Below, piece after piece: positions 4,753 to 34,151 of a stretch of 64,000 nucleotides of DNA. The notes beneath the pieces were generated by a model. It did not search any database. It was given only the letters and a program-made list of their open reading frames with translations, and was not told the origin of the DNA. The position numbers were made by a program, and so were the translations under genes. Source of the stretch: Thermoleophilia bacterium. Its GTDB lineage: Bacteria > Actinomycetota > Thermoleophilia > Solirubrobacterales > 70-9. The stretch covers positions 1-64,000 of the forward strand of contig JAENWT010000004.1 in the NCBI GenBank assembly GCA_016650125.1, given 5' to 3'. The first letter of the stretch is position 1. The number at the start of each line of letters is the position of its first letter.

Positions 4753-5043
4753 ATGATCCTTTACACGTGTGGCCAGAAGACCCACGCCCCCGGCGCCCTG
4801 CATCCCTGCGCCAAGGCGGGAAATGCGCTCGATGCGGCGGGATACGACTACGAGATCAAGACCACGGCCGGCTATCGCCTGCTTCCCTGGACTTGGAAGG
4901 CACGAGACGAGGGCCGCAAAGAGGTCGAGAAGTTGAGCGGAACCAAGGAAGTGCCGATCCTCGTGCTCGATGACGGCGAAGTCATCTCCGACTCGTCCGC
5001 GATCGCCAAGTGGGCGAAAGAACATCCCGCTCCCATCACGTAG
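4753..5043 (+). CDS. Glutaredoxin/GST N-terminal-like small protein
   Basis: A 96-residue protein with a thioredoxin-fold N-terminal pattern: MILYTCGQKTHAPGALHPCAKAGNALDAAGYDYE, then the cis-proline strand EVPILVLDDGEVISDSSAIAKW as in GST/glutaredoxin domains. There is no CxxC pair; cysteines lie at residues 6 and about 19. It contains only the thioredoxin-like half and no all-alpha GST C-domain. It sits 24 nt after purB and is probably the last gene of this purine sub-operon. Substrate unknown. Confidence 0.8.
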   Translation: MILYTCGQKTHAPGALHPCAKAGNALDAAGYDYEIKTTAGYRLLPWTWKARDEGRKEVEKLSGTKEVPILVLDDGEVISDSSAIAKWAKEHPAPIT

Positions 5044-5049
5044 GGGCAA

Positions 5050-5279
5050 GTGGCGCCCGGGAATTGCCTGAGCGGCGCCTGACTTCGTCGACGGCCGGGA
5101 ATGTCAGCTCAAGTACGTGAGTACGATCGCGGACATTCCCGACCTTTACTCCTCGCCAGCCGCTCGCAGGCAGTTCCCGAGCACCACTTGCTCGATGTCT
5201 CGAACAGCCGAGCACTGGGAGCCTCAGAGGGCCGACGAAGCCAGGCGCGCTTAGGTCGTTCCTGAGGGCCACCCGCCAC
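5050..5279. repeat. 230-nt imperfect palindromic element with nested hairpins
   Basis: The intergenic stretch between the glutaredoxin-like gene and the convergent propeller gene is one large imperfect inverted repeat. Ends: GTGGCG 5050-5055 with CGCCAC 5274-5279. Long arms: 5067-5096 (GCGCCTGACTTCGTCG core) with 5229-5255 (CGACGAAGCCAGGCGC core). Inside are GGGAATGTC 5097-5105 / GACATTCCC 5132-5140, and CGAGCA 5178-5183 / TGCTCG 5189-5194 around a 5-nt loop. It could be a MITE-like element, a structured RNA, or an elaborate two-way terminator. A 78-codon minus-strand reading frame through it shows no recognisable family. Confidence 0.65.
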
Positions 5280-5285
5280 CTCAGG

Positions 5286-6224
5286 TCACCCGGGGAAAGT
5301 GGCGCCGATCGCTCCGCTTACCTTCACGATCTCTCCGCCGAAACCTACGACGTAGAGGTTGCCGGCCTGGAATCCCTTTTTTCCGGCTCCGAAGGCCAGG
5401 TTCGACGGTTGCTTGAGACCGGAGGCGACCACACAGATGCGTTTCTTCGAATCGATCTTCCAGACCTGTCCGGCTCCCCAGGCGGCGGCGTAGAGGCTGC
5501 CTTCGTTGTCCCGTGTCAGGCCATCGAGGATCACGGTGCCCGGATCGGGCGACATCGCGTAGGTGATGATGTTGCTCGGGTCGGCGATTTCGATCCGCGA
5601 AATCCTCGAGGGCGCGAGGAAGGTCTGGTTTGCGTAGAGGTACTTGCCGCCGCGGCTGATCGTCAAGCCGTTGGCTCCGGCCAACGTGGCCCAGCCGTTG
5701 GTGGTCGTTCCGTCCTTGATCCGGTCCAGCTTTGTGCCGAGGTCGTTCGAGGCGAAAATCGTTCCGTTCCTGGCCCGGGTGATGCCGTTGGCCATGCCGA
5801 GGTCGTCCGCAACCACGGTCTTTTTTCCGTTGACCGGATTGACGCTGTACAGACCGGCCTTGGGGTCGGTGTCTCCGGTGCTGCCGTTGGCAACTGAATT
5901 GCCATAGCCCCAAAGCAGCTTGCGGCCGGACCAGGCCAACCCGCCGGGACCGGGTGGTCCGTCGACCAGGGGGATCGGAGTGTCGCCGGGCTTCTGGATC
6001 TTGAGGAGCTGGCCGGAGCCCGTGGCTACGCCCGACGGAGTCCCCGCAAAGTAGAGCCGGCCGGCGTTGCCGACGATTACTGATTCGAGCACTCCCTGGT
6101 CCGTGTAGAGCGTCTTCTGCGAATAGGTGCCGTCGCAAAGCGGTATTTCGGCAGCCGCCGATGCGGCAAAAAACGCAAATAGCGCGGAGAAAAGGACAGT
6201 GGTCGAGGCGAGAGTTCGGCGCAT
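5286..6224 (-). CDS. Secreted SMP-30/NHL-type beta-propeller protein
   Basis: About 312 residues from ATG 6224, chosen because it gives a clean signal peptide (MRRTLASTTVLFSALFAFFA, then ASAAA). The body has propeller-like repeats: GNAGRLYFAGTPSG, PGGLAWSGRKLLWGYGN, MANGITRARNGTIFASND, GANGLTISRGGKYLYANQT and LDGLTRDNEGSLYAAAWGAG. This resembles the SMP-30/gluconolactonase/LRE superfamily of six-bladed propellers. The substrate is not predictable, and the metal-binding Glu/Asn/Asp set was not confirmed. Its start codon is only 26 nt from that of divergent purC, so the promoters must overlap the coding regions. Confidence 0.8.
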   Translation of the reverse strand: MRRTLASTTVLFSALFAFFAASAAAEIPLCDGTYSQKTLYTDQGVLESVIVGNAGRLYFAGTPSGVATGSGQLLKIQKPGDTPIPLVDGPPGPGGLAWSGRKLLWGYGNSVANGSTGDTDPKAGLYSVNPVNGKKTVVADDLGMANGITRARNGTIFASNDLGTKLDRIKDGTTTNGWATLAGANGLTISRGGKYLYANQTFLAPSRISRIEIADPSNIITYAMSPDPGTVILDGLTRDNEGSLYAAAWGAGQVWKIDSKKRICVVASGLKQPSNLAFGAGKKGFQAGNLYVVGFGGEIVKVSGAIGATFPG

Positions 6225-6250
6225 GGAAGGTAAAGATACTCTTGCAGCCG

Positions 6251-7102
6251 ATGCTGAAATCGATTGAAGATCTGAAACTCCACTCATCCGGCAAGGTCCG
6301 CGAGATCTATGAGATCGAGGATGACCTGCTTCTGGTCGCTTCCGATCGCATCTCGATCTACGACGTGATCATGCCCACCAGGATCCCGGACAAGGGCAAG
6401 GTCCTGACCCAGATGTCGAATTTCTGGTTCGAGAACACGGTCGCCATCGTGCCGAACCACTTCATCTCGAACGACGTTCCCGAAGAGGTGGAAGGCCGGG
6501 CGGTGCGCGTGCGCAAGCTCGTGATGTACCCGATCGAATGTGTGGTCCGCGGCTACCTCTCCGGCTCCGGCTGGAACGAGTACCAGGAGTCCGGAGCCGT
6601 CTGCGGCGTCGGGCTGCCGGAAGGGCTCCGGGAATCCGACAAGCTGCCGCGGCCGATCTTCACCCCGGCGACCAAGGCCGAGCTCGGTGACCACGACGAG
6701 AACATCGACTTCGAACGGGCGGCCGAAATCGTCGGCGACCGGGCCCTGATGGAAGAGCTGCGCCGGGTAGCGATCGAGATCTACGAATTCGGCGCGAACC
6801 ACGCGGCCCGGAGCGGCATCATCCTGGCCGACACCAAGTTCGAGTTCGGCAGCCACGCCGGCGCCGAGATCGTGCTCGGCGACGAAGTGCTGACCCCCGA
6901 CTCCTCGCGCTACTGGCCGGCCGACCTCTACGAGCCCGGAAAGACGCAGCCCTCCTTCGACAAGCAGTTCGTGCGCGACTGGGCCAACGCCACCGGCTGG
7001 GACCACTCGCCGCCGGCCCCGGAGTTGCCCGACGACGTAGTCACCCAGACCCGCGACAAATACCGCGAGGCCTACGAGCGCATCACCGGTAAGACACTTT
7101 GA
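6251..7102 (+). CDS. purC: SAICAR synthase
   Basis: Condenses CAIR with aspartate using ATP. ATG 6251 gives 283 residues beginning MLKSIEDLKLHSSGKVREIYE, the normal family start; the reading frame is open further upstream but that part overlaps the divergent gene. Motifs: GKVREIYE with ATP-loop lysine near 15, SDRISIYDVIMPTRIPDKGK near 36-55, VRGYLSGSGW, and a C-terminal part with LADTKFEFG. The stop overlaps the TTG start of purS by 4 nt (TTGA). Confidence 0.96.
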   Translation: MLKSIEDLKLHSSGKVREIYEIEDDLLLVASDRISIYDVIMPTRIPDKGKVLTQMSNFWFENTVAIVPNHFISNDVPEEVEGRAVRVRKLVMYPIECVVRGYLSGSGWNEYQESGAVCGVGLPEGLRESDKLPRPIFTPATKAELGDHDENIDFERAAEIVGDRALMEELRRVAIEIYEFGANHAARSGIILADTKFEFGSHAGAEIVLGDEVLTPDSSRYWPADLYEPGKTQPSFDKQFVRDWANATGWDHSPPAPELPDDVVTQTRDKYREAYERITGKTL

Positions 7103-34097: not shown

Positions 34098-34101
34098 AGA
34101 A

Positions 34102-34127
34102 AAGCGGCGCCCCGTCGGGCGCCGCTT
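34102..34127. terminator. Strong bidirectional hairpin
   Basis: Perfect 11-bp stem AAGCGGCGCCC / GGGCGCCGCTT with a CGTC loop between two convergent genes. A-rich sequence on the left and TTGACCAAACTACTT on the right give it terminator potential both ways. Confidence 0.8.
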
Positions 34128-34151
34128 GACCAAACTACTTCTTTGCCGCGA

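What the first reader, a model, noticed from the sequence alone, without database searches (positions are those of the whole stretch)
5050..5279. Long palindromic intergenic element with nested stems
The whole 230-nt gap folds back on itself: outer GTGGCG/CGCCAC ends, 25-30-nt imperfect arms sharing CGACGAAG..CAGGCGC, and at least two inner hairpins. This is much more than a terminator needs. A non-autonomous transposable element or a structured RNA would both fit.
Basis: seen in the sequence. Interest (0 to 1): 0.55.

Follow-up and report, generated by a model that had tools for sequence, protein, structure and literature searches.

The report
Repeated folded element behind stop codons
The palindrome is one full and one broken copy of a small DNA element found dozens of times in this actinobacterium and its relatives, which sits right behind genes and keeps an RNA-like folded shape, though how it spreads and what it does are not yet known.

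Summary
Observation confirmed, anatomy corrected. The 230-nt gap is not one palindrome. It holds a complete ~147-bp imperfect hairpin (5045-5191), starting just behind the stop codon of the left gene, plus the first ~48 bp of a second, inverted, truncated copy (5230-5277) behind the stop codon of the convergent right gene. The element is a dispersed family: 24 full copies in this genome, hits in 13 of 17 same-genus relatives, no Rfam family. Covariation is strong: 27 of 32 pairs change on both sides, 0/500 shuffles. Helix mismatches are A.C not G.U on the plus strand (166 vs 9) and the reverse on the minus strand, so the selected fold is the strand opposite the upstream gene. In 61 of 87 copies the upstream stop codon lies -2..+10 nt from the element. 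Empty sites exist. At shared sites the elements usually resemble copies of their own genome more than each other (22 of 30). No target duplications, Y1 transposase, reverse transcriptase or integron integrase were found. Spreading mechanism and function remain inferred.

The parts
4753..5043 (+). Upstream host gene (GST N-terminal/glutaredoxin-like, 96 aa); stop TAG 5041-5043
   Evidence: ORF; Pfam GST_N_2/GST_N_3
5045..5191 (-). Copy A, complete family unit; the selected fold is on the minus strand (S strand)
   Evidence: R1 158.6 bits, R2 on minus strand 126.3 bits; G.U/A.C asymmetry
5046..5081 (-). One arm of the outer helix of copy A (S-strand 3' arm)
   Evidence: fold and family alignment
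5156..5191 (-). Other arm of the outer helix of copy A (S-strand 5' arm)
   Evidence: fold and family alignment
5083..5089 (-). Conserved internal-loop strand (S: GACGAAG)
   Evidence: nearly invariant columns
5150..5155 (-). Conserved internal-loop strand (S: CGAGGA)
   Evidence: nearly invariant columns
5093..5144 (-). Inner hairpin, variable between subtypes; G/A internal loop (S: GCGAU / UGAGC) below a 4-bp apical stem
5192..5229 (-). Tail of copy A; contains the CTCGGC..TT motif seen beside other copies (small hairpin P0, here poorly preserved)
   Evidence: alignment A3
5230..5277 (-). Copy B: first ~48 bp of a second copy belonging to the minus-strand gene, truncated; resembles copies L048/L049
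   Evidence: R1 partial match 5203-5277, 22.1 bits
5278..5285 (-). CCTGAGGT leader between the minus gene's stop and copy B, also seen before other copies of this subtype
5286..6287 (-). Convergent SMP-30/gluconolactonase-like gene; stop TGA at 5288-5286
   Evidence: Pfam SGL

Best explanation
Shown: a genus-level family of ~145-bp dispersed structured elements placed almost exactly behind stop codons in a fixed orientation. Its selected form is the single strand complementary to the upstream gene, folded into a long hairpin with two conserved internal loops. Inferred: the selected molecule is RNA, made when transcription from the convergent side crosses the element. Folding just before the neighbouring gene's end, it would stop, cleave or stabilise that transcript, acting as a 3'-end barrier against antisense transcription. 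Also inferred: copies arrive by insertion at gene ends or at existing copies, and are then overwritten by recombination between copies of one genome, which explains old sites carrying young sequences. The window holds two such gene-end copies, one per convergent gene, the second truncated.
For: 24 full copies in the own genome; hits in 14 of 18 genus genomes, own included. Covariation 27 of 32 pairs, 0/500 shuffles. Strand-symmetric test: A.C 166 vs G.U 9 on plus, G.U 170 vs A.C 10 on minus, minus-strand energy lower in 87 of 87 copies. Stop codon at -2..+10 nt in 61 of 87 copies, against 5 of 87 convergent stops within 13 nt on the other side. 14 of 20 classifiable own copies face a convergent gene vs 22 of 60 in the window baseline, p 0.018 (counts the copies whatever the caller said of the upstream gene; 4 of 24 had no downstream call). 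Filled/empty sites at the RNase P gene and the L058 gene (0 of 9 relatives filled). At 30 site pairs shared between genomes, both elements are closer to a same-genome copy in 22 and closer to the positional partner in 3.
Against: No transcript data. No promoter-like or U-tailed terminator pattern in 4900-5400. The caller missed the window's own convergent gene. A single-stranded DNA hairpin could give the same G.T bias. Own copies L047 and L057 lie beside the start of a minus-strand gene rather than behind a stop (reading). Many type-B copies lie ~70-80 nt from the stop, after an ordinary-looking terminator, so a further barrier would seem redundant. Many wobbles sit in about five columns and are partly inherited, not independent.
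Confidence: 0.42

Rival explanations
1. A non-autonomous mobile hairpin whose folded single-stranded DNA (the minus strand) is the substrate of a recombinase or transposase, working like the bottom strand of integron attC sites or IS200/IS605 ends; structure is kept for mobility, not for RNA function.
For: Dispersal, empty sites, tandem copies 3-4 nt apart in G014, fixed orientation at gene ends, one-strand folding, replacement at shared sites.
Against: No Y1 transposase and no reverse transcriptase domain in the own genome; no integron integrase above cut-off in 19 genomes; attC end boxes in 0 of 87 copies; no target duplications. Long-retained G.U pairs suit RNA better than DNA (inference).
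Confidence: 0.3
2. An old 3'-UTR element acting on the upstream gene's own mRNA (terminator or mRNA-protecting hairpin), dispersed long ago and homogenised by gene conversion.
For: Anchoring right behind stop codons; the plus strand is still very stable (mean -78 kcal/mol); positions shared by several species.
Against: The plus strand carries the non-pairing A.C form of the wobbles (166 vs 9), so selection does not appear to act on the upstream gene's mRNA; several copies already follow an intrinsic terminator or tRNA/RNase P RNA.
Confidence: 0.15
3. Neutral palindrome: arms kept complementary only by template-switch correction of quasi-palindromes during replication, with no function.
For: Such correction can mimic two-sided changes (recalled); palindromes are common in the neighbourhood.
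Against: The conserved non-complementary internal loops CGAGGA/GACGAAG persist instead of being corrected; G.U excess is on one strand only; placement at stop codons.
Confidence: 0.07

Closest known systems
YPAL / RU-2 of Yersinia (~168 bp; passages of PMC2229807)
   Same: Similar size, palindromic, intergenic, targets at or next to dyad symmetries, filled and empty sites known, proposed effect on RNA
   Different: YPAL makes target duplications of 3-26 bp, none detected here; different phylum; here most copies sit at the stop codon, fold on the antisense strand and show concerted replacement. Sequence relation to YPAL was not tested by alignment
REP elements, GTAG- and CGTC-tagged (passages of PMC3733652)
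   Same: Dispersed extragenic palindromes; CGTC repeats also lack a known transposase
   Different: REPs are 20-40 bp with short stems; here ~145 nt with conserved internal loops; GTAG just before 9 of 87 copies only; no Y1/RAYT gene found in the genome
Integron attC sites (recalled)
   Same: Sit directly behind a stop codon; long imperfect hairpin; bottom strand is the folded active one
   Different: attC end boxes found in 0 of 87 copies, no integron integrase, mostly single copies at dispersed loci
Stem-loop families at 3' ends of genes (passages of PMC1590033)
   Same: Hairpins clustered behind stop codons, some in repeat families
   Different: In the passages read, mostly short hairpins; no case with antisense-strand selection seen there

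Membership tests
MITE / miniature insertion sequence | Dispersed copies with filled and empty sites | tested here: met
MITE / miniature insertion sequence | Target-site duplications | tested here: not met
   mean longest shared flank word 4.51 vs 4.45 in shuffled flanks
MITE / miniature insertion sequence | Terminal inverted repeats matching those of an autonomous element | not tested
   Termini are inverted repeats; no autonomous partner was sought beyond
REP / RAYT system | Y1 (RAYT) transposase in the genome | tested here: not met
   PF01797 0 matches in G000; 1 of 12 genus genomes searched has one
REP / RAYT system | 20-40 bp hairpin with GTAG foot | tested here: not met
   unit ~145 nt; GTAG near start in 9 of 87
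Integron attC | R boxes RYYYAAC and GTTRRRY (consensus recalled) | tested here: not met
   0 of 87 for each
Integron attC | Integron integrase present | tested here: not met
   0 of 19 genomes above the TIGR02249 cut-off
Group II intron / retroelement | Reverse transcriptase in the genome | tested here: not met
   PF00078 0 matches in G000
Known Rfam RNA family | Match above gathering score | tested here: not met
   only sub-threshold matches at the element, mostly miRNA-hairpin families
Functional structured RNA | Covariation beyond controls | tested here: met
   27 of 32 pairs, 0/500 shuffles; sliding controls 9-15 pairs
Functional structured RNA | Transcript detected | not testable with these tools
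   no expression data available

The most novel reading that the evidence does not exclude
A transposase-independent, stop-codon-anchored RNA element: antisense-strand hairpins occupy the same gene ends across species while their sequences are repeatedly overwritten from a common intragenomic pool, perhaps through an RNA- or single-strand-guided exchange of gene 3' ends not described so far.
Probability: 0.15. Interest if true: 0.8.

Novelty: new variant of a known kind. Interest (0 to 1): 0.58.

Why it matters
Most bacterial palindromic repeats are read as passengers of a transposase or as terminators. This family shows selection on the antisense strand, placement to within a few bases of stop codons, and sites that outlast the sequences occupying them. 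If that holds, it is a testable case of an element tied to 3'-end architecture and antisense control, in an order for which the paper searches made here returned no account of such elements.

Tried and rejected
GNRA tetraloops: I first read the apical loops of the own copies (GTGA, GAAA, GGAA, GCAA) as a sign that the plus strand is the RNA (note). Relatives have CCGC, CCAC and other loops, and the mismatch test points to the minus strand; rejected.

Readthrough or recoding at TAG: considered because TAG is over-represented (42 of 61 near stops vs 19 of 48 in the window, p 0.003; TGA 8 of 61 vs 24 of 48, p 4e-5). Reading L219 by eye, the frame closes soon after; not pursued. A preference for TAR stops remains unexplained.

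Element supplying its own stop codon: rejected for L058, where the TGA is shared with unoccupied relatives.

Independently transcribed small RNA: no promoter pattern in the window gap; not excluded, since actinobacterial promoters differ.

Phage or plasmid vehicle: no match in plasmids or phages; three pattern hits in viral contigs are not supported by the model. Pattern hits in 42 genome contigs: only 3 of 42 (L116, L103, L134) are confirmed at E 0.01.

The downstream ~45-57-nt palindromes as part of the same molecule: 27 hairpins behind 87 copies, mixed mismatches (G.T 15, A.C 6); left open.

Papers: searches returned nothing; some searches gave lists. I read passages only of PMC3733652, PMC2229807 and PMC1590033; no whole paper was read.

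Full report
What was checked. The gap at 5044-5285 lies between a plus-strand GST N-terminal/glutaredoxin-like gene (stop TAG 5041-5043) and a convergent SMP-30-like gene (stop TGA 5288-5286). It folds far beyond chance on both strands (z about -7.7, 0 of 200 shuffles).

Anatomy. A search of the own genome (2.83 Mb, 41 contigs) returned 31 matches, most covering only the left ~150 bases or only the last ~60. Alignment of 19 near-complete copies defines a unit of ~141-148 bp. In the window the unit is 5045-5191 (158.6 bits). The right part, 5230-5277, is the left end of another subtype in inverted orientation, closest to copies L048 and L049, behind the stop of the minus-strand gene. The large palindrome is thus copy A plus truncated copy B. 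Folded jointly the minus strand gains about 9 kcal/mol over separate domains (-139.2 vs -130.4), so the joint fold is possible but is not the family structure.

Family. With a covariance model, one search gives 46 matches in the own genome: 24 full copies (84-163 bits), 18 reverse-strand echoes of the same places, and 4 weaker ones, one of them the truncated copy in the window. In the family-level hits the CUGGC(A/G)AGGA and GACG-CCAG loops remain visible by eye. Named records confirmed by the model are Solirubrobacterales bacterium 67-14 (Thermoleophilia), a Solirubrobacterales MAG and an Actinomycetota MAG.

Structure and strand. On 40 minus-strand sequences RNAalifold proposes 35 pairs, 29 with two-sided changes. 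Leaving out one 3-bp local stem, 32 pairs give 94.3% paired cells, 27 pairs changed on both sides and covariation score 0.508 against 0.183 in shuffles (0 of 500 reach it) and 0.07-0.15 in slid controls. The structure was derived from these sequences, which favours it over the slid versions. A strand-neutral test on 87 distinct copies (G-U disallowed in folding) counted 1x1 mismatches inside helices: plus strand A.C 166 and G.T 9; minus strand G.T 170 and A.C 10; minus-strand energy is lower in 87 of 87. In the own copies alone: A.C 32, G.T 4. On alignment A4 there are 137 wobble and 19 A.C cells, in 20 and 9 columns respectively, the wobbles concentrated in five columns, so they are not independent events. 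Two internal loops are conserved: CGAGGA/GACGAAG, and the G/A-containing GCGAU/UGAGC, replaced by other sequence in a third subtype.

Position. Of the 87 copies (24 own places and 63 from 60 stretches of 12 relatives, chosen down the ranking; lower rows and two contig-end rows not fetched), 76 have a same-strand gene stop within 160 nt upstream and 61 have it at -2..+10 nt; on the other side a convergent stop lies within 160 nt in 23, scattered, and within 13 nt in 5. A further own group lies 69-77 nt from the stop, after a shared leader and intrinsic terminator, and own copies also follow RNase P RNA and tRNA genes. By reading, L047 and L057 do not follow a gene end, although the simple caller assigned each an upstream stop (L047 is counted among the 61). 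Gene calls rest on a simple bias rule.

Mobility and turnover. Behind the RNase P gene, G000 and G006 of 10 genus loci carry an element; G001 and G009 share the downstream gene with G000 but have none; the other 6 have different neighbours (neighbours compared by eye). Behind the gene at L058, 0 of 9 relatives have one. Around the orthologue of the window's upstream gene, 0 of 11 genus loci have one at E 0.01, though neighbours differ there. Yet many gene ends are occupied in two or more species. In 30 such pairs (upstream flank match of at least 250 bp) flanks are on average 84% identical and elements 75%; in 22 both elements are closer to a same-genome copy, in 3 the opposite, in 5 mixed. 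Several pairs share a locus, so the sign test (p 1.6e-4) overstates independence, and genomes with one fetched copy have no paralogue to compare. Target duplications show no excess.

Interpretation. A structured, dispersed, stop-anchored element with selection on the antisense strand is shown. That it is RNA, that it limits or processes convergent transcription, and that copies overwrite one another by recombination are inferences. The single-stranded-DNA substrate reading is the main rival. As a kind it stands nearest to YPAL-like miniature palindromic elements (passages of PMC2229807), but target duplication, a feature of that family, was tested and not met, so I do not file it there.

Noticed in passing
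Downstream of many copies, e.g. L200, L204, L206, L210, L219: Several other families of ~45-57-nt palindromes with variable arms follow the element in order: 27 hairpins in 87 downstream regions vs 2 upstream.
   Followed up: partly
L228 and L243 (G014): Element copies in tandem only 3-4 nt apart; other G014 copies lie at contig ends, so longer arrays may be hidden by assembly.
   Followed up: partly
61 copies with a near stop codon: The stop codons are TAG 42, TAA 11, TGA 8, whereas the window's genes use TGA most; the avoidance of TGA is unexplained.
   Followed up: partly
L048, L049, L052, L055, L056, L060, L062 upstream of the element: A shared ~40-nt leader plus intrinsic terminator precedes these copies and recurs at a few other places of the genome.
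   Followed up: partly
window 34098-34128: Terminator-like hairpin reusing the arm word AAGCGGCGCC directly behind a stop codon between convergent genes.
   Followed up: no
L046: RNase P RNA and a c-di-AMP riboswitch next to a copy.
   Followed up: no
window, whole: CTTCGTCGAC with up to one mismatch occurs 41 times against 11 expected; many positions fall in regions called as coding.
   Followed up: no
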